Assembly: GCF_913058315.1 (NCBI RefSeq)
Contig: NZ_CAJXQY010000010.1
Location: forward strand, 1-64,000
Reading direction: 5' to 3'
DNA length: 64,000 nucleotides
DNA from: an uncultured Alteromonas sp.
Lineage (GTDB): Bacteria; Pseudomonadota; Gammaproteobacteria; Enterobacterales; Alteromonadaceae
The notes under the pieces are model-generated. The model worked only from the letters and a program-made list of their open reading frames with translations, had not been told where the DNA came from and made no database searches. Numbering within the stretch: position 1 is the first letter of the stretch; each line of letters starts with the position of its first letter. Shown piece by piece: positions 41,305-63,264 of this stretch. The translations under genes and the position numbers were made by a program.

Positions 41305-42129
41305 ATGTCTATGTTCGTCAATACCAATGTGTCTGCATTAAACGCGCAACGCCAGTTGTTCGATGTATCTAATGCTTTAAGCACTTCATTTGAGCGTCTT
41401 TCATCAGGTTTCCGTATCAACGGAGCTGCTGACGATGCTGCAGGTTTGCAAATTACCGATCGTATGACTTCTCAGATCCAAGGTCTGAACCAGGCTGTAC
41501 GTAATGCTAATGATGCAATTTCACTCACCCAAACCGCAGAAGGCGCGCTGAACGAGACCACTACGGCTCTGCAACGTATTCGCCAACTGGCAGTGCAGTC
41601 TCAAAACGGTATCAACAGCTCTGCTGACCGTGTTGCCCTGCAAAAAGAAGTGTCGGCACTGAAAACCGAAATTTCACGTATCTCTACTGATTCACAGTTT
41701 AACGGCCTTGATCTGTTAACCGGTACTTACTCTGCTAAGTTCCTGGTGGGCGCCAATGGCGGTCAGACTATCTCAGTCAACCTGTCTCGCGCTGGTGGCT
41801 TCGGAGCCTCAGGCCTGAGCGTTGGCTCACTGTCTGTTGCTACGGCTTCAAATGCCTCTGCAGCACTGGCTTCAGTAGATGCCGCAATATCCTCAATCGG
41901 TGGTGTGCGTGCCGACCTTGGTGCACTGCAAAACCGTTTCCAATCGACTATTCGTAACCTGAGTAATATCTCAGAAAACGTATCTGCAGCCCGTTCACGA
42001 ATCAAAGACACTGATTTCGCGGAAGAGACTGCAGCACTAACGCGTAACCAGATTATCCAGCAGGCGAGTACCACTGTTTTGTCTCAGGCAAATCAGCGTC
42101 CGCAGGCTGCACTACAGCTATTAGGATAA
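41305..42129 (+). CDS. fliC: Flagellin (paralogue 1)
   Basis: 274 aa, [47 protein letters not shown]-terminal D0. Confidence 0.95.
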   Translation: MSMFVNTNVSALNAQRQLFDVSNALSTSFERLSSGFRINGAADDAAGLQITDRMTSQIQGLNQAVRNANDAISLTQTAEGALNETTTALQRIRQLAVQSQNGINSSADRVALQKEVSALKTEISRISTDSQFNGLDLLTGTYSAKFLVGANGGQTISVNLSRAGGFGASGLSVGSLSVATASNASAALASVDAAISSIGGVRADLGALQNRFQSTIRNLSNISENVSAARSRIKDTDFAEETAALTRNQIIQQASTTVLSQANQRPQAALQLLG

Positions 42130-42231
42130 TCCGTTATGACACCCAAGTCAGGGAATGGGGCCAGGAGGTAGTGAACCAGGTATCCGCCTGACACCGGGAG
42201 TTAGCTCACTCTCAATTAAAAATGAGCATTA

Positions 42232-42249
42232 GCCGGACGAAAGTCCGGC
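42232..42249 (+). other. GNRA-capped hairpin downstream of flagellin 1
   Basis: GCCGGAC-GAAA-GTCCGGC, perfect 7-bp stem. Confidence 0.65.
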
Positions 42250-42307
42250 GCTTTAACGGCTGTAACTTATTGATTTTTAAGCTCAATAAAATTTAGTAAA
42301 AAAAGGC

Positions 42308-42335
42308 TAAAGGATTTCTCCTGCCCGCACGATAA
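42308..42335 (+). promoter_or_regulatory. Weak sigma28-like promoter for flagellin 2
   Basis: TAAAGGAT-12 nt-CACGATAA (one extra spacer base). Confidence 0.5.
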
Positions 42336-42480
42336 CTATTACAAAGGCACTGCGAATAACAAAAATAAATACGCAAAAGTGCCAGGCTGATCGCCCCAAT
42401 AATAACAATATGATCGGCCAGACCAGGTTAACAAAAACAATAAAAACCTGGGTAATACAAAATCGTTAGGAGATTAAAAA

Positions 42481-43311
42481 ATGAGCTTATACGTTAGCAC
42501 GAATGTGTCGTCGCTGAATGCTCAGCGGCAACTATTTACCTCAAATAACCATTTGAGTACCGCTTTTGAGCGCTTGTCTTCCGGTTTCCGGATTAACAGT
42601 GCCAAAGATGATGCCGCTGGACTACAAATTTCAGACCGTATCACATCCCAAATTATGGGCCTGGATCAGGCCGTTCGTAACGCCAATGACGGGATTTCTC
42701 TCGCTCAGGTTGCCGAAGGCGCCATGCAGGAAATCACTACCGCATTACAGCGTATCCGTGTTCTGGCTATCCAGGCACAAAATGGTATTAATACCTCCGC
42801 TGACCGTCTGGCACTGCAAAAAGAAGTGTCAGCTCTGAAAACTGAGATTTCGCGTATTGCGTCGACCTCTCAGTTCGCGGGTGGGGATATTCTTACCGGT
42901 ACGTTCTCTACTGCATTCCTGGTAGGAGCGCAGGCAGGGCAATTTATTAACTTCAATCTGTCTCGCTCCGGCGGTTATGGCTTCTCAGGCTTAACCAACG
43001 GGTATAACGCCAGTGTTTTGACGGCCGGACAGGCGTCAGCCACGTTACCTATTATCGATTCGGCCATTTCAGCCATCGATGCCAAGCGTGCAGACCTGGG
43101 TGCGATTCAAAACCGCTTCCAGTCAACTATCAGAAATTTAAGCAATATTTCGGAAAACGCTTCAGCGGCACGGTCACGTATCAGAGATACTGATTTCGCT
43201 ACTGAGACTGCCGAACTGACTCGCTGGCAGATTATCCAGCAGGCCAGTACCACGGTACTGAGCCAGGCGAATCAGCGGCCTCAGGCTGCACTACAGCTGC
43301 TGCAAGGTTAA
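42481..43311 (+). CDS. fliC: Flagellin (paralogue 2)
   Basis: 276 aa, [46 protein letters not shown]. Confidence 0.95.
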
Positions 43312-43325
43312 TCCTATGCATAAGC

Positions 43326-43436
43326 TTACGAATGCAAAACGCGGGGGCAGACTGCATTCGGTAATCGAATAACGATGAGTAGATAAAAAGAAAAACGGTC
43401 GAGTTGCAATATGTGGGGGCAGACTGCAATCGACCG
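43326..43436 (+). repeat. Tandem pair of stem-loops sharing a 16-nt G-rich loop with different stems
   Basis: 43326-43364 TTAC(-)GAATGCA/TGCATTCGGTAA and 43396-43436 CGGTCGA(G)TTGCA/TGCAATCGACCG; shared GGGGGCAGACTGCA (43343-43356, 43415-43428). Confidence 0.7.
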
Positions 43437-43769
43437 GTGAGTAGAGTGTATTTGCAAGACAACGTGGTATTTGGTTAACGCTAAATGACAAAACCAGTGG
43501 GTTTTGTGTGTTGAGCTAAGCTGCCGACTGACAGGAATGAAGCCAGGAGGTAGTGAGAGGTATGAGGTCTGAACATCATACCTGCAGTCAGCATGAGCTT
43601 GTGCTCAATTTAGCACTGCTTAACCAGGCATACGCCAAGCAAAGCGTCAGTTTTTTATCACTGACGCCATAAACAATGCATAGGCTGTGCCAACACGTTG
43701 AAGTGATTTTTAAATCGCGTTGAAAATAATAAAAACAACAACGCTAACTTTAACTGTTAGGAGTAATCC

Positions 43770-44600
43770 ATGAGTCTATACGTTAACACCAATGTGTCCT
43801 CTCTGAACGCTCAGCGTCAGATGTTTAGCTCAAGCAACGGGCTGGATACCGCTTTTGAACGCTTGTCTTCAGGCTTTCGCATTAACTCTGCAGCCGATGA
43901 CGCAGCCGGTCTGCAAATCTCTGACCGTATGACCAGCCAGATCCAGGGTCTTGATCAGGCCGTGAGAAACGCCAATGACGGTATTTCTCTGGCCCAGACT
44001 GCTGAAGGGGCGATGCAGGAGATCACCACCGCGCTGCAGCGTATTCGGGTACTGGCAATCCAGTCCCAGAATGGTATCAACACCTCTGCAGACCGCCTCG
44101 CTCTGCAAAAAGAAGTGTCAGCGTTAAAAACTGAAATCTCACGGGTTGCGACTACCAGCCAGTTTGGTGGGGTAGATATTCTTACTGGTGGCTATTCCGC
44201 TAAGTTCCTGGTCGGCGCCAATGCCGGACAAACTATCAGCGTGAATATTTCACGAACCGGCGGCTACGGCTTCTCTGGGCTCACCAATGGTCAGAGTGAT
44301 TTGTCGATTGCCTCAGCGGCAACAGCTTCGGCGGCATTGACCACCATTGATTCTGCTATTTCTGCCATCGATGCCAAACGGGCTGATTTAGGTGCGATTC
44401 AAAACCGTTTCCAGTCAACCATCAGAAACTTAAGTAATATTTCTGAGAACGTTTCAGCGGCAAGATCGCGCATCCGGGATACAGATTTTGCCACTGAGAC
44501 GGCACAACTTACCCGCTTCCAGATCATACAGCAGGCAAGTACAACGGTACTATCCCAGGCTAATCAGCGACCGCAGGCAGCATTGTCGTTATTGGGCTAG
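43770..44600 (+). CDS. fliC: Flagellin (paralogue 3)
   Basis: 276 aa, [46 protein letters not shown]. Confidence 0.95.
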
Positions 44601-44642
44601 ACTTAAAGAAATACCATAGAGGGTAGGAATTGAGAGGCCAAC

Positions 44643-44680
44643 CCTTGCCAGGGATGGCGGCCGTAAGGCCACCAACAAGG
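44643..44680 (+). other. GNRA-capped hairpin downstream of flagellin 3
   Basis: CCTTG...TGGCGGCC-GTAA-GGCCACCA-CAAGG. Confidence 0.5.
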
Positions 44681-44802
44681 ATTAAAACGCCGACTAGCAG
44701 AATTGAGAGTGTAGAATTTAAGGTTGAGAGGCCAGTATATTTCTACTATTTCCGCCAGCCGACTGAAACTGAATTTGCTCAAACTCCTAACGTGAGCAAG
44801 TT

Positions 44803-44833
44803 GGCCGGGTCACTATTTGACTCGGCCTTTTTT
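44803..44833 (+). terminator. Rho-independent terminator after flagellin 3
   Basis: GGCCGGGTC-ACTATTT-GACTCGGCC then TTTTTTA. Confidence 0.85.
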
Positions 44834-45320
44834 ATTTTTATTACCGAATCGTTTCCCGTCACTTACCCAAGTTGCTTTGCAACACTGGTGCCAGCTTTTC
44901 ACTTTTATTACTCATTCACCGTACAGCCCTTATTTTGCGGCTTTTCAGCATAGCCTTCAGTGACGCTGGCGGTGCTTACTTGTTCACATCTGACAAATTA
45001 TTGACGTGCAAAAGCGGAGAATGCTTGCCAGTTAATGCCGCTCCGAGCGGATGATTTTGCCGCCTGCTATCTTTGCCAAGGTTGCGCCGATCTTAAATCA
45101 TTACCGGCTATAGCGATTGAAGTGCGGTTTATATCTACCTTTATTTCACCCACAGACTTTTACTCACCGACGCCTTACAAAGCAACTTGGCTGCGCTTAA
45201 AAAGGCACTGGCAGCGATGTTTTAGCACGAAAGTCGTAAAAAGGTAGATGAATATATATGTTTAAAATCAGTATTTTACGATTAAATTTAAACTTATTTA
45301 ATTTTTTTTCGAAAAAAAAC

Positions 45321-45347
45321 TAAAGATTCTCAAGGTTAGGCCGATAC
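45321..45347 (+). promoter_or_regulatory. sigma28 promoter for flagellin 4
   Basis: TAAAGATT-11 nt-GCCGATAC, preceded by a very AT-rich tract. Confidence 0.87.
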
Positions 45348-45539
45348 CTTTAGTTGAGGGGTAATTCATTTGATGAATTGCGTAGTGTCTGAGAAGCGCT
45401 ACAAAATGAGGTGGTTTAGCAATTGTTGTTGTGATGAATATCGCAACTAACGATTCAGTGCTAAATCAGGTACGAAAGATTATAGCTTAGCAGAGTCCGG
45501 GGGGATTCGGCTACAGGTATAATCCCAGGAGGTTAGATA

Positions 45540-46367
45540 ATGTCTTTATATGTAAATACAAACGTCTCGGCCCTGAATGCACAGCGTCAGCTTTTCGATG
45601 TGAGCAACAAGCTAAGCACATCATTTGAGCGTCTGTCTTCAGGTTTCAGAATCAATAGCGCATCCGATGACGCCGCCGGTCTGCAAATTTCAGATCGTAT
45701 GACGTCGCAAATCCAGGGCCTTAACCAGGCTGTGCGAAATGCAAACGATGCAATTTCACTCACGCAAACAGCGGAAGGCGCCTTATCTGAGGTAACGACC
45801 AGCTTGCAGCGTATTCGTCAGTTGGCAGTTCAGTCGCAAAACGGTATCAACAGCTCTGCTGACCGTATTGCACTGCAAAAAGAAGTGTCAGCACTGAAAA
45901 CTGAAATGTCGCGTATTGCTACTGACACCCAGTTTGGTGGTGTTGATCTTCTGGACGGTAGTTATTCCGCTAAGTTTTTGGTAGGCGCAAATGGTGGCCA
46001 GACCATCTCTGTTAATCTGTCACGTACTGGTGGCGGTTATGGTACTTCGGGTCTGTCACTGGCTAACCTGTCAGTGTCATCAGTCTCCGGTGCTTCTGCA
46101 GCCCTGACATCTATTGATTCAGCTATCTCTACCATTGGTGGTGCACGAGCTGACCTGGGTGCCTTGCAAAACCGCTTCCAGTCTACTATCCGTAACTTAA
46201 GCAGCATCTCTGAAAACGTATCTGCTGCCCGTTCTCGTATCCGTGATACAGACTTTGCGTCAGAAACGGCTGAACTGACTCGTAACCAGATCATTCAGCA
46301 GGCGTCTGTTTCGGTACTGAGTCAGGCTAACCAGCGTCCACAGACAGCGTTGTCGTTGTTAGGTTAA
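45540..46367 (+). CDS. fliC: Flagellin (paralogue 4)
   Basis: 275 aa, [46 protein letters not shown]. Confidence 0.95.
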   Translation: MSLYVNTNVSALNAQRQLFDVSNKLSTSFERLSSGFRINSASDDAAGLQISDRMTSQIQGLNQAVRNANDAISLTQTAEGALSEVTTSLQRIRQLAVQSQNGINSSADRIALQKEVSALKTEMSRIATDTQFGGVDLLDGSYSAKFLVGANGGQTISVNLSRTGGGYGTSGLSLANLSVSSVSGASAALTSIDSAISTIGGARADLGALQNRFQSTIRNLSSISENVSAARSRIRDTDFASETAELTRNQIIQQASVSVLSQANQRPQTALSLLG

Positions 46368-53361: not shown

Positions 53362-54398
53362 GTGCCGTGCTTTTTTGTACCGGTGGTAGCCATAAAGCGG
53401 GCATTGGCCATATTATGCGTTGCCAGGCGCTTGCCCAGGTAGCCGAGGAACAGGGATTGGAAAGCCTGTTTGTGGTAAACGAGGCAGCCCGGCAGTTCAT
53501 AATGCAACGTCATGATTGGAGCGGACGGCTGCTATTAGCTAAGGATACTGCGCCGGCACTGGCCAGCCAGCTAATGCGGCTGGCCAGTGAAAGTGCCGCC
53601 ATAGCTATCGTGCTCGATGGTTACGATTTCAGTGAGACGTTGCTACGTGAAGTTAGTACCGCCGGGGCTCCGTTGGTGTTGCTGGATGATATTCGCCAGC
53701 CCGGATTTCAGTATGCGGATATACTGTGTAATCCGGCAGGCGAGGCATGGCGTGAGAGTTACGTTCAGGCGAACCCTGTCGCCATGTTATGTTTAGGTGC
53801 AAAATACCGCCTGCTAAGACGAGAGTTTTCAGTCACTCAACCGTTACCGATAAATCAGCGCTTTAGTCTGACCATCAATATGGGAGGCAGCGATCCCGCC
53901 GGATTAACCTTACCGGTACTCGAAGCGCTAACCGTAGCATTGCCGGACGCGCCATTCAGGGTAGTCACCGGCCCGGGCATGACGGTGGAAGCGCTTAACG
54001 CATTAACTCGCTTTATAACAGAGAGTGATAGTGCTATTCAGCACGTGCACAATTGTCAGGATATGGCCGATCTGTGGGTCAATGCCCGTCTTGCGGTGGT
54101 TGCTGCCGGAGGCAGTCAGTTCGAGCTGGCTGCGTGCTTAACGCCTTCGTTATTGCTTACTGTGGCCGATAATCAGCGCCAGGCCAGTGAGCAAGCTGCC
54201 GGACAGGGCTGGTGTGAGGTCATGAATGCAGAAGAAAAGCTGGAGTTCGCCGCTCTTACAGCCAGAGTAAAAGCGCTTTGGCAGGATGAAAATCGCCTGG
54301 AAGTTATGTCTCAGGCAGCCTCTGAAGTTGCCGTCACCGATGGCGCCTGGCAGCTTCTGGATGCCATTGCTCAATGGCGCAACGATCAGGTGGGGTAA
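53358..54398 (+). CDS. pseG: UDP-2,4-diacetamido-2,4,6-trideoxy-L-altropyranose hydrolase PseG
   Basis: TGGSHKAGIGHIMRCQALAQ, INMGGSDPAGLTLPVLEAL. Confidence 0.92.
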   Translation: MSAVLFCTGGSHKAGIGHIMRCQALAQVAEEQGLESLFVVNEAARQFIMQRHDWSGRLLLAKDTAPALASQLMRLASESAAIAIVLDGYDFSETLLREVSTAGAPLVLLDDIRQPGFQYADILCNPAGEAWRESYVQANPVAMLCLGAKYRLLRREFSVTQPLPINQRFSLTINMGGSDPAGLTLPVLEALTVALPDAPFRVVTGPGMTVEALNALTRFITESDSAIQHVHNCQDMADLWVNARLAVVAAGGSQFELAACLTPSLLLTVADNQRQASEQAAGQGWCEVMNAEEKLEFAALTARVKALWQDENRLEVMSQAASEVAVTDGAWQLLDAIAQWRNDQVG

Positions 54399-54399
54399 C

Positions 54400-54978
54400 A
54401 TGTTGAGCGACGAACCGGTAAATCAGTTTACTCTGAGTGCCTACCAGGTTGAGTTACTGCCGATGACACAGGCCCATCAGGCGTTGCTGCGTAGCTGGCG
54501 CAATCAGGATGAAATTCGCCGGCAAATGTTGTCGGCGACGTTGATCACTGAAGAACAACAACAGGCGTGGTTTAAAAAAACGCACCTCGACCCTAAACAA
54601 TTGCATTGGGTCATCAAATTTCGCGATCAATTAATCGGGGCGACAAATGTTAAGTCGCTGGAAGCCGGTAAAACGGCTGAACAGGCTAACTTGTTGGAGC
54701 CTGGCTTATATATCGGTGAGCGGCGTTACCAGGGTAATATCGTGGCTTTTGCGCCAACCCTGGCTATGTATGACTTTTGTTTTGACCAGCTAGGCGCGCA
54801 ACGATTCAGGGCGGTGGTTAAGCGTAGTAATCATAATGCAATGAGTTACAATCAAAAGCTTGGTTATGCCATTGTCGAAGATAACGACCTTTGTGTACTG
54901 GAACTGGATCTAGAGAGTTATCGTCAGGCAACGGCCCCGATTAAACAGTTTTTATCACGCACTCGCAACGCGAAATAA
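54400..54978 (+). CDS. pseH: GNAT N-acyltransferase PseH
   Basis: LRSWRNQDEIRRQMLSATLITEEQQQAWF, GNAT fold; start at ATG 54400. Confidence 0.88.
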   Translation: MLSDEPVNQFTLSAYQVELLPMTQAHQALLRSWRNQDEIRRQMLSATLITEEQQQAWFKKTHLDPKQLHWVIKFRDQLIGATNVKSLEAGKTAEQANLLEPGLYIGERRYQGNIVAFAPTLAMYDFCFDQLGAQRFRAVVKRSNHNAMSYNQKLGYAIVEDNDLCVLELDLESYRQATAPIKQFLSRTRNAK

Positions 54979-54992
54979 GGAACGAGATACAC

Positions 54993-55235
54993 GTGGATAC
55001 GCAACAACAATTACAACAGGCCTTTAGTGATGCACTGGGGATCCCGCCGGAAAAGGTCACCGACGGACTCACTTACAATACCATCCCTGAGTGGGACTCA
55101 ACGGCTCATATGGTGTTAATCGCAGAATTAGAAAATGTATTTGATGTGATGCTGGATACCGATGACATTATTGATATGAGCTCGGTGGCTCAGGCTAAAT
55201 TAATTTTACAAAAATACGATGTCACTTTCGTCTAA
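54993..55235 (+). CDS. Acyl carrier protein
   Basis: 80 aa, IPEWDSTAHMVLIAELENVFDV with phosphopantetheine Ser. Confidence 0.88.
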   Translation: MDTQQQLQQAFSDALGIPPEKVTDGLTYNTIPEWDSTAHMVLIAELENVFDVMLDTDDIIDMSSVAQAKLILQKYDVTFV

Positions 55236-55983
55236 TACTGTTTTGCAAAATGCTTCTGTACTGGTTACCGGAGCAAGCGGCGGCATCGGCCAGGCGGTTG
55301 TGGCCGCCTGCATAGAAAGCGGTGCCACCGTATTTGCCGGCGGACGCAACGAAGAGGCGCTGAGCGCCATGCAGGAGACCTTTGGCAAAGTATTACGGCC
55401 GCTTGTTTACGATGTTACCGACGAGCATGCGGTGAAAGACACATTCCGGCAACTGCAGCGCCAGGTTTCGGATGGGCTGTCCCCGCCGTTATTTGGCCTG
55501 GTAAATAATGCCGGTGTGATGCTGGAGTCGCCGTTATCGGTAACCAGCATGGACAAACTTAAACAGCAGCTCAATATTAACTTTCTCGCTCCTTATCAGC
55601 ATATGCAATTGGCCAGCCGACTAATGAGCCGCCTACGCCGAGGCAGTATCGTTAATATTGTATCGCAGGTCAGTGAGCAGGGAAGTAAAGGCATGAGCGC
55701 GTACGCGGCCAGTAAAGCAGCCCTGACCGGCGCAACCAAATCCCTGGCGAAAGAACTGGCACCGGTGGGTATTCGGGTGAATGCGGTAGCGCCCGGATTT
55801 ATCGATACTCCACTTACCGAACATTACGAAGAAGAAGCCAGACAAAAAGTGCTGCAGCGAACCGTGCTGCAGCGTGCCGGCACTGCAAAAGAAGTGGCTG
55901 ACGCAGTGCTCTATTTACTCTCCGAGCAAGCCGGTTATACCACCGGGCATGTGCTACCTGTTGATGGACACTTTTGCCCATGA
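55219..55983 (+). CDS. SDR family oxidoreductase (FabG-like)
   Basis: VLVTGASGGIGQAVV, NNAGVM, YAASKAAL. Confidence 0.9.
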   Translation: MSLSSNTVLQNASVLVTGASGGIGQAVVAACIESGATVFAGGRNEEALSAMQETFGKVLRPLVYDVTDEHAVKDTFRQLQRQVSDGLSPPLFGLVNNAGVMLESPLSVTSMDKLKQQLNINFLAPYQHMQLASRLMSRLRRGSIVNIVSQVSEQGSKGMSAYAASKAALTGATKSLAKELAPVGIRVNAVAPGFIDTPLTEHYEEEARQKVLQRTVLQRAGTAKEVADAVLYLLSEQAGYTTGHVLPVDGHFCP

Positions 55984-57389
55984 GTTATGCAGAGCTGGCG
56001 ATCCCGTTTATTAAAGCCCACCGGCAATCAGAACGCGTGGCATTGATGGATGATACCGACAGTCTCACTTACCGCGAGTTAAGTGAGGCAGTAGAACGTC
56101 GAGCGCAAAACTGGCAGCAAATTGTTACCCTTCATCGCCCGCTGGTGATGATGCTTATTGATAACAGTATTACCAGTGTGGTGGATTACTTAACCGCGCT
56201 AAGCCTCGATTATGTGGTGCTGCTGCTTAACCCCGCGTGCTCGCTTGTTACCCGTGAACAGTATTCACAGGCATTAACACCCAATGCGGTAATTGGTGAT
56301 GGCACCGTTACCCTTTTGCATAACGAGCCATTGCCAACAGATGCGCGGCTAAGCCTGTTATTATCGACTTCCGGTAGCACTGGCGCCGGCAAGTGCGTGG
56401 CGCTCTCGCAGCATAATCTGATGGCGAACTGTGACGCCATTTTAGCGTATCTGCCCATTGTGGCAGAGGATATTACGCTGGCTACCCTGCCGCTCAGTTA
56501 TTCTTACGGACTGTCGGTATTGCACACGCATCTCAAAGCAGGTGCAGCAATTTGTTTTACCCGCCACAGCGTGTTCGATAAAGCGTTCTGGGAACTGGTA
56601 AAAAACCGTCCGGTGACGTCGCTGGCAGGTGTGCCATCTTTTTACGAAATGCTGCTTCGACTGCGCTTTACCCGCATGGCTTTGCCGGCCCTTCGCTATT
56701 TTACTCAGGCTGGCGGTAAACTGGCTGAAGCCCATGTGACCGGTCTGGCCGAGTACGCCAAACAAACCGATAAAGCATTTTATGTGATGTACGGCCAGAC
56801 TGAAGCCACGGCCCGTATGGCCTACCTGGCGCCAGAAAAAGTACTGGAAAAACCGCAATCCATTGGACAACCAATAGCTGGCGGAGAGTTTAAACTGGTT
56901 GATGGCTTAGCCAGTGAATGTACTGAAGGGGAGCTGTATTACCGTGGTGACAATGTGATGCTCGGATATGTGGCCTCAGTGTCAGATTTGCAGGCTTTTG
57001 AACCGAGTGAATGGCTGGCAACCGGCGATCTGGCAGTGTGTGATGAGGAGGGAGATTACACCATTATTGGGCGTAATAAGCGCATGATTAAGCTGGCTGG
57101 CGAACGGATAAATCTGGATGTGGTTGAGCAGCTTTATTTAAAAGAGCTGGCTGTTCTTAATCTAACTTCACCGGCATGTGTGATTGGTACCGATGACAAG
57201 ATTATTGCCGTTTATGCCGGTTTTCTGGCTGACGGTAGTCGTCAGAATGTGCTTGCAGCATTGGTTAAATCCCTCGCTTTGCCAAAACGCAATTTGCAGT
57301 TAAACGTTATCGATGCGTTACCGCTTCTGGACAATGGTAAAATCGATTATGCACAGTTAAATAAGCGACTGGCGGCACGGGAGGACTGA
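55980..57389 (+). CDS. AMP-dependent acyl/acyl-ACP ligase
   Basis: LLSTSGSTGAGKCVALSQHNL, YGQTEATARMAYL, ATGDLAVCDEEGDYTIIGRNKRMIKLAGERI; ATGA overlap with SDR. Confidence 0.9.
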   Translation: MSYAELAIPFIKAHRQSERVALMDDTDSLTYRELSEAVERRAQNWQQIVTLHRPLVMMLIDNSITSVVDYLTALSLDYVVLLLNPACSLVTREQYSQALTPNAVIGDGTVTLLHNEPLPTDARLSLLLSTSGSTGAGKCVALSQHNLMANCDAILAYLPIVAEDITLATLPLSYSYGLSVLHTHLKAGAAICFTRHSVFDKAFWELVKNRPVTSLAGVPSFYEMLLRLRFTRMALPALRYFTQAGGKLAEAHVTGLAEYAKQTDKAFYVMYGQTEATARMAYLAPEKVLEKPQSIGQPIAGGEFKLVDGLASECTEGELYYRGDNVMLGYVASVSDLQAFEPSEWLATGDLAVCDEEGDYTIIGRNKRMIKLAGERINLDVVEQLYLKELAVLNLTSPACVIGTDDKIIAVYAGFLADGSRQNVLAALVKSLALPKRNLQLNVIDALPLLDNGKIDYAQLNKRLAARED

Positions 57390-57391
57390 TT

Positions 57392-58465
57392 ATGTTTCCG
57401 GGTTATCCAACTGACCTTTTCGACTTGCCAGTTTACGGACTGGCCCGTGCCGAAAAACAAGCCATGCTTAATGGCGTACTGCAGCAACTCACTGCATATC
57501 ATTACCGGCACTGTCAGGCATATCAGCAGATGATTGATTGCAGTCCTTTCGATTTCCGCAATGCTGCTGGTGATGCACAACTACCCGTTGCAGCAAGATT
57601 GTTTAAGGATCTTGAGCTTGCCAGTATTCACCCAACACAGGTATTTCGCCAAATGCGCTCTTCGGGGACCAGTGGGCAGGCATCAAAGATAGCGTTGGAT
57701 GGCGAGTCAGCTAGACGTCAGAGTCAGGTGCTTGTGAAGATCCTGCAAAGCTGGCTGGGGAAACAACGTCGTCCTATGTTGCTGATTGACGCGCCTTCCA
57801 CCATTAAAAAAGCTGGTAGCATGACCGCCAGAGCCGCAGGCTTGCAAGGGGTGTCTCTGTTTGGGCGTCACCATTGTTATGCACTGGATGATGATATGCA
57901 ACTCAATGTTGAGCGGGTGCTGGCTTTTTGCAGGCAATACGAACAGCAACCGGTATTAATATTTGGATTTACATTTCTTGTCTGGCAACGGTTTATACAG
58001 GCGTTAATGACACAAGGTATTCGTGTTAGTTTCAGTAATGCCATTTTGATTCACGGCGGTGGCTGGAAAAAAATGAAGGAGCAAGCGGTCACTGATAAAA
58101 CATTTAAAGCTGCCATACGCACTACACTAGGCAATGTCAGTGTCCATGATTATTATGGCATGGTAGAACAAACGGGTACCATTTATGTGCAATGCGAAAA
58201 CGGGTACTTACATACGCCGGTATGGTCTGATGTTATTATCCGAAATGCCAATGATTTATCCCCGCTTGAGCACGGAGAAAGTGGTCTTATTCAGGTTAAC
58301 TCTGTGTTGCCCACCAGTTATCCGGGGCACTGTATTTTAACGGAGGATCTAGGCACTATTATCGGGGAAGATGACTGTCAGTGTGGTCGTTTGGGTAAAT
58401 ACTTTAATGTGCACGGGCGAGTTCCTAAAGCGCAAGTGAAGGGATGCAGTGATACATTTAGCTGA
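57392..58465 (+). CDS. LuxE-like acyl-protein synthetase
   Basis: MRSSGTSGQASKIALD, VLIFGFTFLVW, GGGWKKMKEQAV, GNVSVHDYYGMVEQTGTIYVQCE. Confidence 0.85.
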   Translation: MFPGYPTDLFDLPVYGLARAEKQAMLNGVLQQLTAYHYRHCQAYQQMIDCSPFDFRNAAGDAQLPVAARLFKDLELASIHPTQVFRQMRSSGTSGQASKIALDGESARRQSQVLVKILQSWLGKQRRPMLLIDAPSTIKKAGSMTARAAGLQGVSLFGRHHCYALDDDMQLNVERVLAFCRQYEQQPVLIFGFTFLVWQRFIQALMTQGIRVSFSNAILIHGGGWKKMKEQAVTDKTFKAAIRTTLGNVSVHDYYGMVEQTGTIYVQCENGYLHTPVWSDVIIRNANDLSPLEHGESGLIQVNSVLPTSYPGHCILTEDLGTIIGEDDCQCGRLGKYFNVHGRVPKAQVKGCSDTFS

Positions 58466-59627
58466 TTCATTATCATCTGAGATAAACTGGCACATCAAAC
58501 CTGATTCGCAGGCGCAGGATCACTCCGCTGCACCTTTAGACGCGATTAAAACTGCGGTGGCGGGATTTTCGGCCTATCTGTTTAAACATCCCACAGCGCG
58601 CGAGTTTCCGGAAATAGTCGCGTTGGCATTTTGGTTCCGTCAGGCGCATCTCGACCAGATAACTGTGGAATTGAAATGTCACCAAATCCACAGACAGGTC
58701 AAACGAGTGTTTCATATAGCACCGGCCAATGTGGATACAGTTTTTATGTATTCAGTATTGTTGTCGGCGTTATGCGGTAATAAAAACGTTGTCAGAGTCA
58801 GCCAGCGAAGCGGCGATGCTACCTGGTTATTAATTGCCTTGCTAAGGAATTATCTGACACTGGCGGAAGGGAGCGACCTTGCTCCGCTGATAGGTGTACT
58901 GGAATATGATGCACTGCATCAGCAGATTACCGAGCAATTAAGCCATTGGTGTGACTTACGGGTTATATGGGGGGGTGACAACGCTATCACCGCCATTTCT
59001 GGGATAGTTCCACAAACACCGCAAATTTGTTTTCCGGATCGTTATTCGGTCACTGTACTTGAGCTTTCCAGGGAGGCTGATTTTGCTAAACATGCGAGGG
59101 CTTTTCTGGCGGATGTTGTACCTTTTACACAGCAAGCCTGCTCTTCACCTAAAGCGATCTATTGGCTAAATACTGATGTTGAAAGTCAGACGCAGTTCTG
59201 GCTGCAGGTAGGTTTAGCTTTGGAATCGATATCGCATAAATTTGAAATGAGCCATAAGGTAGAGCAGCATATCCAGTTGCAAAAACTGGCTGCCAGCTAC
59301 GGGATGACATTATGGCAGCATACGGGCAATAAACATGGTTCTTTTGCCCGTATCCAGAATGTGGGCCCCCTAAGTCACTGTAAAGTCAAAAGCTTGACTG
59401 CCGGAGTGCTCGAAGCACATGACGGCAATGGTTTGGTGCTTGAGCAAGACATAGCGTCCGTTGAAGAGGTTGCTTGTTCGTCGAAGTTGCAAACTATCGG
59501 TTATGCCGTAGCCAGAGATTGGCAAGACCCAAATGGACAATTTAAGCGGGTTGTGCCTGTGGGTAAAGCACTGGAATTTGCGCCAGTGTGGGACGGTGTG
59601 AATTTAATTCAGGCATTTGGTCAATGA
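58449..59627 (+). CDS. LuxC-like acyl-CoA/acyl-enzyme reductase
   Basis: VFHIAPANVDTVFMYSVLLSALCGNKNVVRVS, PFTQQACSSPKAIYWL (candidate catalytic Cys). Confidence 0.85.
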   Translation: MIHLADSLSSEINWHIKPDSQAQDHSAAPLDAIKTAVAGFSAYLFKHPTAREFPEIVALAFWFRQAHLDQITVELKCHQIHRQVKRVFHIAPANVDTVFMYSVLLSALCGNKNVVRVSQRSGDATWLLIALLRNYLTLAEGSDLAPLIGVLEYDALHQQITEQLSHWCDLRVIWGGDNAITAISGIVPQTPQICFPDRYSVTVLELSREADFAKHARAFLADVVPFTQQACSSPKAIYWLNTDVESQTQFWLQVGLALESISHKFEMSHKVEQHIQLQKLAASYGMTLWQHTGNKHGSFARIQNVGPLSHCKVKSLTAGVLEAHDGNGLVLEQDIASVEEVACSSKLQTIGYAVARDWQDPNGQFKRVVPVGKALEFAPVWDGVNLIQAFGQ

Positions 59628-59652
59628 AGTTGTTACAACAAGAGGTTATTGG

Positions 59653-62600
59653 ATGTTAAAAGATATCCGTATTCATTTGGCTGCAGAGGAAGCCGAGCAG
59701 GAACGACTCGAGCAGGCGCTTTCCAGGCATATCGTTTCCAATCACCGTCGCAGTATCATGGCTTTTGCCCGTCATATTCCCTCGTTATTACCAGAAGTAC
59801 AAAATGTTGCGACTGAGAATATTGCGATCTTTGCCAATAAAAACGGGGAATACAATATTGTTGATTACGGAACAGGACGAACTGTATATGGGCTTACCCC
59901 CCAGGCTGAGATCCTCCAACAATATCAGAACATAAAAAATCATGCGCCCTTCATAGCATTACATTGTGACGAAAAAGAGCGTAGCGAAGAAGGCGATAAT
60001 TCGCTGAAATCCATTGCACAGGTTGCTGACTTACCTGGTTATAGGAAGCAGATAGGCTATTCAGCATTACCACAAAACGTCAATGTAATGGTGGTGATGG
60101 GACTGGGACTGGGTTACCACATTGAGCAACTGGTAAAACATCATAACATCAGTCACCTGATCATTTATGAGCCAGAGCGCCAGTATTTTCAGTGTTCTGT
60201 CCTTGCGCTCGATTGGCAACGTTTGTTGCAAACGATGGAGGCCAAAGGGACAGCTGTATTTTTACTCCTTGAAAAGGATGGACGGGATCTTATTGAGAAT
60301 ATTACCGAACTGACCCAACATGTTAACGTTGATGGCTTTTATTACTACAAGCACTATAACCATGCAATTTTTGATCGTTTGGAGGTTGGTTTAAGAGACA
60401 AATCCTGGTCTCAATTGTCTAGGGACGGATTTGATTTAACTCCGAATAGCAATCCAAATCTCTTTTTGCCGGTGTGGTCAGGCAGTATCGAACTGGAAAT
60501 GGTGCACTCCGTTGATAAATCAGACACGTTGTTTAACCGCAATCTATCTGCATTTAAAAAATACTTTCCAGATATCTATAAAGAGTTTGCGGCGTATTGT
60601 CCGACTGACTGGCTGCCAGTAAGAAACGAGCATGACGAGATAAACCTTATTCAGAAACAATCTTTGGCCCCCTTCGGAGGAAAGGCTCCCAGGCAGGATG
60701 CTGATGAAAGTTTTAACCACTTTAAACGGTTCCCACAAAAAGACGGTCTTGTTCTGGGCTATACCGGTACTAAGCTTAAACGATACAAACACTATCAGTT
60801 TGTGGAGAAAACCGAATCGCTGCTTAACGACATTGCGGAGGAAGCAGGCCAGTTGCCAGCAACCGTAAAATCTTTGATTATGTTCGGTATCGGGCTTGGT
60901 TATCAGGTCGAGGCGCTTTTTAAACAACGCCGTGTGGAAAAATTATTCCTGTGTGAGCCTAACCGCGACTTTTTCTATGCCTCCTTATATGCCATTGATT
61001 GGCATTCTATTCTGAACCAGGCAGACAAAGATAATTGCCGGATATATATCAATATTGGTGACGATGGTTCGCATTTGTTCAGAGACTTACTGGCCCAGTT
61101 TTACTCAATAGGTCCCTACATTCTGGCAAGTACCTATTTCTATCAGGCTTACTACAATGCGCATTTAGTACACGCCCTGGCTCAACTTCGGGAGCAACTG
61201 CAAATTGTCATTTCGATGGGTGAGTATTTTGATCATGCGCTGTATGGTATTTCTCACACCATTGAAACGATCAACCGTGGCTATCCGCTGTTAGAAGCTA
61301 ACCCTGCTAAAAAGTTAAGCTTGAAGCAAAAGGAGACCCCAGTCTTTCTGATAGGAAATGGCCCATCTCTGGATGATTGTCTTGCTACCATCAAGGAATG
61401 GCAGGGGAGAGCGATAGTTGTGTCATGTGGTACTGCACTGATGCCTTTATATAAGAATGGTATTATTCCTGATTTTCATGCTGAAATTGAGCAAAATCGC
61501 TCCACCTTCGATTGGGTTAGTCGCATTGCTGATTTTGACTTTTTAAAACGCGTCAGTCTTCTTAGTTGTAATGGAATACATCCCGATACCTGCGATTTAT
61601 TCAAAGAGGTTTTCGTCGCTTTTAAATCCGGTGAATCATCGACCGTATCATCTCTTAACATTATTGGTCGTGCTGCATACGAAGAGCTGGATTATGCCTT
61701 CCCGACAGTATCGAATTTTGCGTTGAATCTATTCATTAAGATAGGCTTTAACCAGATCTACTTGTTTGGTGTTGATCTTGGATTTACTGATCGTAAAAAA
61801 CATCATTCCATTCAGTCCGGCTATTATGAGAGTGATGGCGAGGAGATGTACGATTACAGTGAGAAAAATAATACCTCTATTGTTGTACCGGGTAATTTTG
61901 AAAAGACTGTTTTTACCAAGCATGAATTTAAAGTATCTAAAGATATTCTGGAGCAAACACTATCGAATAAGTCGTTAGACTGTTTTAACTGCAGCAATGG
62001 TGCAAAGATCAAAGATACATTACCGCTAAAATGCGACGACGTTTTATTGGTCAGTACAGAAGAAGATGCCTCAACTGTGGTGGAGGTAATTAAACGTAAC
62101 GTGTTTAAGCCCGTTGCTAACCACAGGCATTACATAGCGCAGTTTGCTGCGAGATACCGACAGGATATTCTGTTAGCGGAATTGGATCATCTGCTAGCCC
62201 TGATCAATGAGCCGATAGTGTCTGTCGAAGAGGTCAATACGCTAATAGAAAAGCAAAAGAACACTATCTTTGAATCCTATAAAAATGGTTCGTCATTGTT
62301 GTTCTACCTCCTCTATGGAAGTATGAATTACTGCAATGTACTGCTCAGCAAATGCGAGAATATAAAACAGGAAGAGACTTTACTGAATTATGCCGAAGGG
62401 GTTTTGCAGCAGTGGTCAGCTTTTCTGGCCGAAGTAAAAGAATTGGTCCATCATTTAGATGTCAATTTCGATACTTCCGAGTCATTTGGAGACATCAGGC
62501 AAGTGGCTCACCTAAAGCGTTTCAGTGCAAAGACTGTTTACCTCACCAATATTCATCAAGAGCACATATTTAATCAGTTCAAGGAACGTTTCTTCACTAA

Positions 62601-63264
62601 AGACGTTATCGAGATCAAAGTACTTGAGCCAGATAGTTTAGAGACTCTGCAGTTAGTTGGAGACGAAGCCATCCGATTTGCTTTTTTGGTCAATAGTCAA
62701 AAGCAGGTTGACCACTTAATTGATGTCTTAAATGCCAGTTCGCTCACACAAGGTCATGTTTTTTGGTTCAGTGAAAATGTGTCTGAACTGGATTTTTCCG
62801 GTTTGCGTTTTTCCTGCAGTATCGTTGTTCATCCGGATTTTGTTTATGGTCCTGATGGCCTGCGGCAGATAGTTGAGGGAAGCGCTGCATATTGGGTGGA
62901 AGAACGCATGCCCTACGTTGCGTTAAAATATAATTTCCAGGCGGATTACAGCAGAGTCGTTGTACCAAAGGTTAAAGTCAGAGCAAGTGCCCATCATAAG
63001 ACAGTCATGACAAACTTTTACTATAAAGTGGTTACTAACACGCAAGACTATAGTCATTATCTGGATTTCGGCGAATACCTTGTCTTTGCATCCGATAATG
63101 ACTTGCGTTTGAATTTGACAGATATGGCTGGTAACAGAGCAGGGCTGTTTTCTGTGGCAAACCTAACGGCGGATACATTGCTGGAGGCTGAAATCTGTAA
63201 CGATGTACTGGAGTCCATTTACCTGACCTACGACGCGGGTAAAGCTGGCGGGAGTTATAATTAA
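59653..63264 (+). CDS. maf: Motility accessory factor (Maf, DUF115) flagellin nonulosonic acid transferase, very large
   Basis: PVFLIGNGPSLDDCLATIKEWQGRAIVVSCGTALMPLYKNGIIPDFHAEIEQN; end of pse operon; start at ATG 59653 with AGAGG SD. Confidence 0.85.
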   Translation: MLKDIRIHLAAEEAEQERLEQALSRHIVSNHRRSIMAFARHIPSLLPEVQNVATENIAIFANKNGEYNIVDYGTGRTVYGLTPQAEILQQYQNIKNHAPFIALHCDEKERSEEGDNSLKSIAQVADLPGYRKQIGYSALPQNVNVMVVMGLGLGYHIEQLVKHHNISHLIIYEPERQYFQCSVLALDWQRLLQTMEAKGTAVFLLLEKDGRDLIENITELTQHVNVDGFYYYKHYNHAIFDRLEVGLRDKSWSQLSRDGFDLTPNSNPNLFLPVWSGSIELEMVHSVDKSDTLFNRNLSAFKKYFPDIYKEFAAYCPTDWLPVRNEHDEINLIQKQSLAPFGGKAPRQDADESFNHFKRFPQKDGLVLGYTGTKLKRYKHYQFVEKTESLLNDIAEEAGQLPATVKSLIMFGIGLGYQVEALFKQRRVEKLFLCEPNRDFFYASLYAIDWHSILNQADKDNCRIYINIGDDGSHLFRDLLAQFYSIGPYILASTYFYQAYYNAHLVHALAQLREQLQIVISMGEYFDHALYGISHTIETINRGYPLLEANPAKKLSLKQKETPVFLIGNGPSLDDCLATIKEWQGRAIVVSCGTALMPLYKNGIIPDFHAEIEQNRSTFDWVSRIADFDFLKRVSLLSCNGIHPDTCDLFKEVFVAFKSGESSTVSSLNIIGRAAYEELDYAFPTVSNFALNLFIKIGFNQIYLFGVDLGFTDRKKHHSIQSGYYESDGEEMYDYSEKNNTSIVVPGNFEKTVFTKHEFKVSKDILEQTLSNKSLDCFNCSNGAKIKDTLPLKCDDVLLVSTEEDASTVVEVIKRNVFKPVANHRHYIAQFAARYRQDILLAELDHLLALINEPIVSVEEVNTLIEKQKNTIFESYKNGSSLLFYLLYGSMNYCNVLLSKCENIKQEETLLNYAEGVLQQWSAFLAEVKELVHHLDVNFDTSESFGDIRQVAHLKRFSAKTVYLTNIHQEHIFNQFKERFFTKDVIEIKVLEPDSLETLQLVGDEAIRFAFLVNSQKQVDHLIDVLNASSLTQGHVFWFSENVSELDFSGLRFSCSIVVHPDFVYGPDGLRQIVEGSAAYWVEERMPYVALKYNFQADYSRVVVPKVKVRASAHHKTVMTNFYYKVVTNTQDYSHYLDFGEYLVFASDNDLRLNLTDMAGNRAGLFSVANLTADTLLEAEICNDVLESIYLTYDAGKAGGSYN

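What the first reader, a model, noticed from the sequence alone, without database searches (positions are those of the whole stretch)
54993..59627. Five-gene acyl activation/reduction cassette (ACP, SDR, AMP-ligase, LuxE-like, LuxC-like) inside the pseudaminic acid/flagellin glycosylation operon
Seen: five translationally coupled genes (17-bp ACP/SDR overlap, ATGA SDR/ligase overlap, LuxE/LuxC overlap) sit between pseH and the Maf transferase. Established: LuxE activates acyl groups and LuxC reduces them to aldehydes in bioluminescence; ACP plus ligase loads acyl chains. No luxAB is present. Inference: the cassette makes an unusual acyl group (or aldehyde) that is attached to the nonulosonic acid or flagellin, replacing or adding to the acetyl groups normally installed by PseC/PseH chemistry. 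The presence of a reductive LuxC/LuxE pair, not only an acyl-ACP route, is the unexplained part.
Basis: partly seen in the sequence, partly recalled or inferred. Interest (0 to 1): 0.78.

Follow-up and report, generated by a model that had tools for sequence, protein, structure and literature searches.

The report
Acyl-group cassette for flagellin sugar
Five linked genes in a marine Alteromonas, a set already catalogued but never explained in the flagellum-sugar islands of Aeromonas, most likely build a small hydroxylated acid and hang it, in place of an ordinary acetyl group, on the sugar that coats the flagellum.

Summary
In detail: an ACP, an SDR, an AMP-ligase, a LuxE-like and a LuxC-like gene lie in one overlapping run between pseH and maf, all with intact catalytic residues. 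The gene set is not new. It was listed as orf1-orf2-orf3-luxE-luxC after pseH in Aeromonas Group II flagellin islands (2021) and as a gene list in Enterobacteriaceae (2016), with no function beyond "liposugar".

New here: (1) all 40 LuxC loci fetched from relatives carry ACP, ligase and LuxE, and nearly all carry pse genes; (2) the adjacent "PseH" is a distinct subfamily: 0 of 40 keep the second glycine of the GNAT donor loop, against 19 of 19 canonical PseH, and none reaches the PseH cut-off; (3) outside pse loci the same five genes sit beside other amino-sugar N-acyltransferases (PglD-like, FdtA/GNAT); (4) LuxE-LuxC is a separately exchanged pair; (5) the 376.14-Da Pse of Aeromonas AH-3, a Group II strain, equals Pse5Ac7Ac with one acetyl replaced by C4H6O3, the composition of V. 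cholerae O1 tetronate.

Best model: LuxE/LuxC reduce a carboxylate to an aldehyde, the SDR reduces it further, ligase and ACP activate the hydroxy acid, and variant PseH puts it on Pse N7. Chemistry unproven.

The parts
54400..54978 (+). Variant PseH: GNAT amino-sugar N-acyltransferase, probable acceptor-side enzyme of the cassette (the listed ORF begins at 54286, inside pseG)
   Evidence: Below the TIGR03585 cut-off; donor loop lacks the second Gly of GxG in 40/40 cassette homologues against 0/19 canonical PseH; AF2 model pLDDT 95.5, best PDB fold hit H. pylori PseH 4ri1, with the hydroxybutanoyl-transferring FdhC 5ktc also in the list
54993..55235 (+). Acyl carrier protein, phosphopantetheine Ser36 in EWDS
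   Evidence: PF00550; WDS invariant in 40 sequences
55219..55983 (+). FabG-like SDR reductase
   Evidence: PF13561/PF00106; closest PDB relatives are 3-oxoacyl-ACP reductases; catalytic S149, Y162, K166 invariant in 37; not found in the cassette of 3 of 40 loci
55980..57389 (+). AMP-forming acid:ACP/CoA ligase
   Evidence: PF00501; TSGSTG, YGQTE and catalytic K456 (numbered from the TTG start at 55974) conserved; nearest structures are A-domains and oxalyl/malonyl-CoA and similar ligases, low similarity
57392..58465 (+). LuxE-like acyl-protein synthetase
   Evidence: PF04443; acyl-transfer Cys352 aligned to LuxE of 7xc6 and invariant in 24 sequences; extra invariant C268/C329/C331 absent from lux LuxE
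58449..59627 (+). LuxC-like acyl-thioester reductase
   Evidence: PF05893; QQAC Cys231 aligned to LuxC of 7xc6 and invariant in 21 sequences
59617..63264 (+). Maf nonulosonic acid:flagellin transferase (context)
   Evidence: PF20157 and PF01973
49442..54398 (+). pseB-pseC-pseF-pseI-pseG (context, Pse backbone)
   Evidence: NCBIfam equivalogs above cut-off for PseB, PseC, PseI and PseG; pseF by homology and order
41305..46367 (+). four flagellin genes (context, probable acceptors)
   Evidence: tblastn

Best explanation
The five genes plus the variant pseH form one pathway that replaces the N-acetyl on the 4-amino group of the UDP-sugar precursor (N7 of pseudaminic acid) by a small hydroxylated acyl group. 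Proposed order: LuxE activates a free carboxylate as acyl-AMP, passes it through its Cys to LuxC, and LuxC reduces it with NAD(P)H to an aldehyde; the SDR reduces the aldehyde (or a keto group) to an alcohol; the AMP-ligase loads the other carboxylate onto the ACP; variant PseH transfers the acyl group to the amino sugar. PseG, PseI and PseF finish CMP-Pse, and Maf puts it on flagellin. The likeliest acyl group has composition C4H6O3 (2,4- or 3,4-dihydroxybutanoyl, derivable from malate), giving a Pse residue of 376.148 Da. Shown: gene content, conserved catalytic residues, co-occurrence, the PseH subfamily, association with other amino-sugar N-acyltransferases. Inferred: every reaction, substrate and product.
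For: Gene content and catalytic Ser/Cys/Lys/Tyr residues. Co-occurrence in relatives: all 40 LuxC loci have the ligase and LuxE, 38 with a pseI homologue. In the cross-phylum set LuxC was found at 80 of 80 LuxE loci and the ligase at 79 of 80 (read by eye). Cassette PseH is a separate subfamily: 40/40 under the cut-off, 19 genomes over it and none of them with the cassette, donor-loop change 40/40 against 0/19. pseI-pseG-pseH-ACP-SDR-LIG distances correlate at 0.68-0.89 within the Alteromonas-like subset. The same five genes lie beside a PglD-like LbH acyltransferase and a DegT aminotransferase (L170; L205 lacks the DegT label) and beside FdtA, a GNAT and a DegT aminotransferase (L169), so the common factor is acylation of an amino sugar. 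Vibrio ACP-ligase-Fe-ADH-LuxE::LuxC fusion parallels the V. cholerae O1 rfbK-L-M-N order (recalled), where the 471-aa ligase WbeL is predicted to be needed for tetronate on the 4-amino group of perosamine (PMC3441752). A. piscicola AH-3, described with the same five genes, carries Pse of 376.14 Da, still present without fgi-1 (PMC7874193); Ac to C4H6O3 gives 376.148. Precedent for a sugar GNAT with a hydroxyacyl donor: FdhC 5ktc.
Against: No biochemistry, no mutants and no mass data from this organism. 376.14 comes from one Aeromonas strain; C2H4O2 is one of several formulae within 0.02 Da, and O-methylglyceryl is isobaric with dihydroxybutanoyl. FdhC also lacks a GxG loop and is solved with CoA, so the loop change shows an altered donor site, not ACP use. 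SDR is missing from 3 of 40 loci. LuxE-LuxC phylogeny is weakly coupled to the rest (r 0.28-0.52), as would also be seen if the pair served another step. The Vibrio fusion set is only 20-38% identical to the cassette. Malate as substrate is a guess.
Confidence: 0.55

Rival explanations
1. The ACP, ligase and FabG-like SDR make (R)-3-hydroxybutyryl-ACP (from acetoacetate or similar), variant PseH transfers it to give Pse5Ac7(3-OH-butanoyl), 360.15 Da, and LuxE-LuxC does something separate.
For: SDR is nearest to FabG; FdhC, a 3-hydroxybutanoyl sugar GNAT, is among the structural neighbours; 3-hydroxybutanoyl Pse is known in capsules and LPS (general knowledge); LuxE-LuxC evolves apart.
Against: All 40 relatives keep LuxE-LuxC with the ligase; non-pse amino-sugar clusters keep all five as well; AH-3 shows 376, not 360 Da.
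Confidence: 0.2
2. LuxE-LuxC makes an aldehyde that is used for a further sugar or a glycan cap rather than for the Pse acyl group, while ACP-SDR-ligase supplies the Pse acyl.
For: LuxE-LuxC is exchanged as a unit beside the variable glycan region, and maf sits between ligase and luxE in several loci. In other phyla LuxE-LuxC lies with a split transketolase (L158, L199) or with IlvB-like and NeuB-like enzymes (L156, L258), as if an aldehyde were chain-extended.
Against: The gene after LuxC is not constant (Fgi-1-like GT2, sulfatase-like or others); no TPP or extra NeuB-like enzyme was seen in the window cassette; being next to a variable region explains the exchange by hitchhiking.
Confidence: 0.15
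3. Long-chain fatty acyl or fatty aldehyde 'liposugar' on the flagellin glycan, as suggested in the Aeromonas and Enterobacteriaceae papers.
For: Family names (fatty-acid reductase LuxC/LuxE, FabG, ACP); suggestion in PMC7874193 and PMC4875605.
Against: The only measured Group II linking sugar known to me (376 Da) leaves no room for a fatty chain; LuxE and LuxC are far below the NCBIfam cut-offs of the fatty-acid enzymes (65/550 and 34/750 bits); LuxE carries a Cys set absent from lux LuxE.
Confidence: 0.06

Closest known systems
Aeromonas Group II flagella glycosylation islands (Forn-Cuni 2021, PMC7874193; orf1-orf2-orf3-luxE-luxC after pseH)
   Same: Same five protein families, same order, same place after pseH; polar flagellin carries a 376-Da Pse derivative
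   Different: Here pseB-C-F-I-G-H are contiguous, luxC is followed directly by maf, and no Fgi-1-like gene lies directly after luxC; function was not worked out there either
Enterobacteriaceae flagellin islands with Acp, LuxE, LuxC, CaiC, FabG (De Maayer 2016, PMC4875605)
   Same: Same gene list in flagellin islands of more than 70 strains
   Different: No mechanism; read as liposugar; sequences were not compared here
V. cholerae O1 rfbKLMN / wbe tetronate pathway and the Vibrio ACP-ligase-Fe-ADH-LuxE::LuxC set found here (L254-L257)
   Same: ACP, AMP-ligase of about 471 aa, LuxE and LuxC; product in V. cholerae is a C4H6O3 acyl on the 4-amino group of a 4-amino-4,6-dideoxy sugar
   Different: Fe-ADH instead of SDR, LuxE and LuxC fused, 20-38% identity, different sugar; RfbN as a LuxE::LuxC fusion in V. 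cholerae is recalled, not checked
LuxC/LuxE fatty-acid reductase of bioluminescence (PDB 7xc6)
   Same: Acyl-transfer Cys of LuxE and reductase Cys of LuxC conserved
   Different: Low identity, additional Cys cluster in LuxE, no luxAB or luxD noticed in the operon
PseH (4ri1, 4xpl) and FdhC (5ktc)
   Same: GNAT fold, amino-sugar nucleotide acceptor
   Different: Donor loop lacks the second Gly of canonical PseH; FdhC is the precedent for hydroxyacyl transfer to an amino sugar

Membership tests
Aeromonas-type Group II FGI | ACP, SDR, AMP-synthetase, luxE and luxC directly after pseH | tested here: met
Aeromonas-type Group II FGI | Fgi-1-like GT2 directly downstream of luxC | tested here: not met
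   maf follows luxC, then a sulfatase-like gene and a GT8
Aeromonas-type Group II FGI | pseBC separated from pseFGHI by glycosyltransferase genes | tested here: not met
   pseB to pseH contiguous
LuxCE fatty-acid reductase of lux operons | LuxE acyl-transfer Cys and LuxC active-site Cys | tested here: met
   C352 and C231, aligned to 7xc6
LuxCE fatty-acid reductase of lux operons | Scores above the curated cut-off for long-chain LuxE/LuxC | tested here: not met
   65.2 of 550 and 34.3 of 750 bits
LuxCE fatty-acid reductase of lux operons | luxA, luxB and luxD nearby | tested here: inconclusive
   no luciferase-like gene was noticed among the operon ORFs, but the ORFs were not all scanned and the genome was not searched
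PseH (TIGR03585 N-acetyltransferase) | Score above the curated cut-off | tested here: not met
   58.7 of 93.1 bits; same for all 40 cassette homologues
PseH (TIGR03585 N-acetyltransferase) | Donor loop with GxG as in 19/19 canonical PseH and 4xpk | tested here: not met
PseH (TIGR03585 N-acetyltransferase) | Acts on UDP-4-amino-4,6-dideoxy-AltNAc | not testable with these tools
   position in the pse operon only
V. cholerae O1 tetronate pathway (RfbK-L-M-N) | ACP, AMP-ligase, LuxE and LuxC domains | tested here: met
   (against the Vibrio fusion set, not V. cholerae itself)
V. cholerae O1 tetronate pathway (RfbK-L-M-N) | Fe-ADH between ligase and LuxE/LuxC | tested here: not met
   an SDR takes its place
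V. cholerae O1 tetronate pathway (RfbK-L-M-N) | Product 3-deoxy-glycero-tetronyl on an amino sugar | not testable with these tools
   mass agreement in Aeromonas AH-3 only

The most novel reading that the evidence does not exclude
A portable five-gene module, spread over several bacterial phyla, in which a LuxC/LuxE carboxylate reductase and a dedicated ACP build short polyhydroxylated acyl groups for amino-sugar N-acyltransferases; in flagellin islands it makes N-dihydroxybutanoyl pseudaminic acid, with an acyl-ACP-dependent PseH subfamily.
Probability: 0.4. Interest if true: 0.72.

Novelty: new member of a known kind. Interest (0 to 1): 0.52.

Why it matters
LuxC/LuxE homologues in glycan clusters are usually labelled fatty-acid or bioluminescence enzymes and left there. 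If this reading holds, they mark non-acetyl N-acyl groups on bacterial amino sugars, the unexplained 376-Da flagellin sugar of Aeromonas gets a testable formula and pathway, and a simple signature in PseH (loss of the GxG donor loop) predicts from sequence which pseudaminic acids are not Pse5Ac7Ac.

Tried and rejected
Fatty-acid or bioluminescence role: rejected on curated cut-offs, LuxE Cys set and glycan mass. "Two-residue insertion in PseH means no CoA": weakened after the profile alignment to PDB chains showed SpeG with the same loop length and FdhC, solved with CoA, without a GxG loop; only the loss of the second Gly and subfamily status are kept. S. oneidensis sfmABCDE as the counterpart: different genes, no LuxE/LuxC. 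LuxE-LuxC tied to one downstream transferase: not seen. A V. cholerae paper describing rfbK-N was not found in the library; the JBC 2012 AH-3 paper is not held. A recalled Treponema flagellin acyl could not be checked and is not used. First pass at canonical PseH sequences mis-handled minus-strand loci; redone. The ORF-based count of cassette genes loses genes to ORF competition; the tblastn maps are used instead.
Full report
OBSERVATION. Pfam assigns PP-binding, SDR, AMP-binding, LuxE and LuxC, then Maf. PseB, PseC, PseI and PseG upstream pass NCBIfam cut-offs, PseH does not (58.7 of 93.1 bits). The gene listed at 54286 most likely starts at 54400, just behind pseG. Catalytic residues are present: ACP Ser36, SDR S149/Y162/K166, ligase TSGSTG and K456, LuxE C352 and LuxC C231, the last two aligned to the solved LuxC-LuxE complex 7xc6 and invariant across relatives.

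KNOWN BEFORE. The same five genes in the same order after pseH are described in 98 Aeromonas strains with Group II flagella glycosylation islands (PMC7874193), and the same gene list in more than 70 Enterobacteriaceae strains (PMC4875605). Both papers suggest a fatty "liposugar" and, in the passages read, test none of the five genes singly. So the cassette is known as a gene list and unexplained as a function.

DISTRIBUTION. Of 148 related genomes 43 match the LuxC; the two weakest of these are outside the group. The 40 loci fetched from other genomes all have ligase, LuxE and LuxC (in L071 the ligase and LuxE read as one long frame); 37 show the SDR, and 38 show a pseI homologue within about 10 kb (ORF maps). 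In L039, L049, L058, L059, L061, L063, L065 and L067 maf lies between ligase and luxE. No SDR was found in the cassette of three loci (L039, L056, L060), and their genomes hold only general SDRs at 39% identity or less. Counting genomes, LuxC 40, ligase in all 40, and 2 more ligases of that score without LuxC give a Fisher p of 4e-34, ignoring relatedness. In a scan of named genomes the best 80 LuxE loci span Proteobacteria, Bacteroidota, Bacillota, spirochaetes and others. In the tblastn map, read by eye, LuxC was found at all 80 and the ligase at 79; 33 have pseI at 45% or more. These 80 were chosen by similarity to the window's LuxE and are not a random sample.

WHAT THE CASSETTE SITS NEXT TO. 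Outside pse loci the set is found with other amino-sugar acylation genes: L170 has a PglC-type sugar transferase, a PglD-like LbH protein, ACP-SDR-LIG-LuxE-LuxC and a DegT aminotransferase; L205 has the PglD-like gene directly before the ACP but no labelled DegT gene after LuxC; L169 (Flavobacterium) has FdtA, a GNAT, the five genes and a DegT aminotransferase (L205's LbH call rests on its sequence resemblance to the scanned L170 protein, and DegT calls rest on 25-30% similarity to PseC). The shared element is an N-acyltransferase just upstream of the ACP. Other clusters combine LIG-LuxE-LuxC with a split transketolase (L158, L199) or with IlvB-like and NeuB-like enzymes (L156, L258); of these, only one transketolase subunit was scanned against Pfam.

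THE PSEH VARIANT. A whole-genome search with the PseH model found 19 genomes over the cut-off; none of them has a LuxC match. Cassette PseH score about 57-86 bits. In an alignment of 40 cassette and 19 canonical PseH, all 19 and 4xpk have Gly at the second position of the donor loop, while cassette proteins have I, L, V or F when the loops are read against each other by eye, and Ala at the MAFFT column (38/40). The gap placement is uncertain: SpeG has the same loop length as the cassette proteins and FdhC lacks GxG yet is solved with CoA. So the change marks a different donor site and does not by itself prove ACP use. A confident AF2 model (pLDDT 95.5) matches H. pylori PseH best, with FdhC, a 3-hydroxybutanoyl transferase, also among the hits.

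MODULES. Distance matrices for 46 loci: pseI, pseG, pseH, ACP, SDR and LIG correlate at 0.76-0.90, LuxE with LuxC at 0.86, but LuxE/LuxC with the others at only 0.47-0.62 (0.28-0.52 in the Alteromonas-like subset of 30). No significance test was run on these. The gene after LuxC varies, so the pair may be dragged along with the variable region.

CHEMISTRY. AH-3 flagellin carries a 376.14-Da Pse derivative, still there when fgi-1 is deleted. Pse5Ac7Ac is 316.127; exchanging one acetyl for C4H6O3 gives 376.148. Within 0.02 Da eleven CHNO changes fit arithmetically; this one is the simple acyl exchange, and O-methylglyceryl is isobaric. The unexplained 102-Da cap of the same glycan also equals C4H6O3 (102.032). 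V. cholerae O1 perosamine carries a C4H6O3 acyl (tetronate) on its amino group and the 471-aa ligase WbeL is predicted to be required for it (PMC3441752). In four Vibrio genomes I found ACP-ligase-Fe-ADH-[LuxE::LuxC fusion, about 825 aa] next to a nonulosonic acid locus with, in L254, a PglD-like LbH gene (Pfam run on L254 only, and the ACP of L257 was not recovered in the ORF list); from memory this is the rfbK-L-M-N order. It suggests that LuxE-LuxC plus a dehydrogenase turns a carboxylate into an alcohol before the ligase and ACP activate the acid. The identities to the window cassette are low (20-38%), so this is an analogy, not membership.

VERDICT. The five genes are best read as a hydroxyacyl-ACP pathway feeding a dedicated PseH-type acyltransferase. 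Acyl-group synthesis for Pse: fairly likely. C4H6O3 as the group: plausible from one strain. The order of reductions and the starting acid: inference.

Noticed in passing
L158, L199 (also by gene lengths L185, L187, L194, L196, L197, L208, L209, L218): SDR, a split transketolase (two genes of about 270 and 325 aa) and ACP-LIG-LuxE-LuxC in Clostridia, Bacteroidota and others, as if LuxC's aldehyde were chain-extended by a TPP enzyme. Only the N subunit of L158 was scanned; the others are judged by sequence or length.
   Followed up: partly
L156, L258 (similar by gene lengths L171, L186, L203): LuxE-LuxC, ligase and ACP with an IlvB-like TPP enzyme and a NeuB-like gene, a combination recalling sfmA/sfmB of S. 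oneidensis.
   Followed up: no
L254-L257 (Vibrio): ACP-ligase-Fe-ADH-LuxE::LuxC fusion beside a nonulosonic acid locus; may be a tetronate-type acyl pathway on a legionaminic-like sugar.
   Followed up: partly
window 57392-58465: Cassette LuxE has invariant C268, C329 and C331, absent from lux LuxE (7xc6) and partly shared with a phenylacetate-CoA ligase-like chain (9s3l); possible metal site.
   Followed up: no
PMC7874193, A. piscicola AH-3 glycan: The unknown 102-Da cap equals C4H6O3, the same composition as the acyl proposed for the 376-Da Pse.
   Followed up: partly
L136 7515-15144 (contig beyond the window): After maf: sulfatase-family protein, GT8, GT2, an unassigned 384-aa protein and a large multi-domain protein, a glycan-extension region that varies between relatives.
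   Followed up: partly
L133 and L134 (G115, G090): A ligase of about 270 bits without LuxE/LuxC or pse genes nearby.
   Followed up: no
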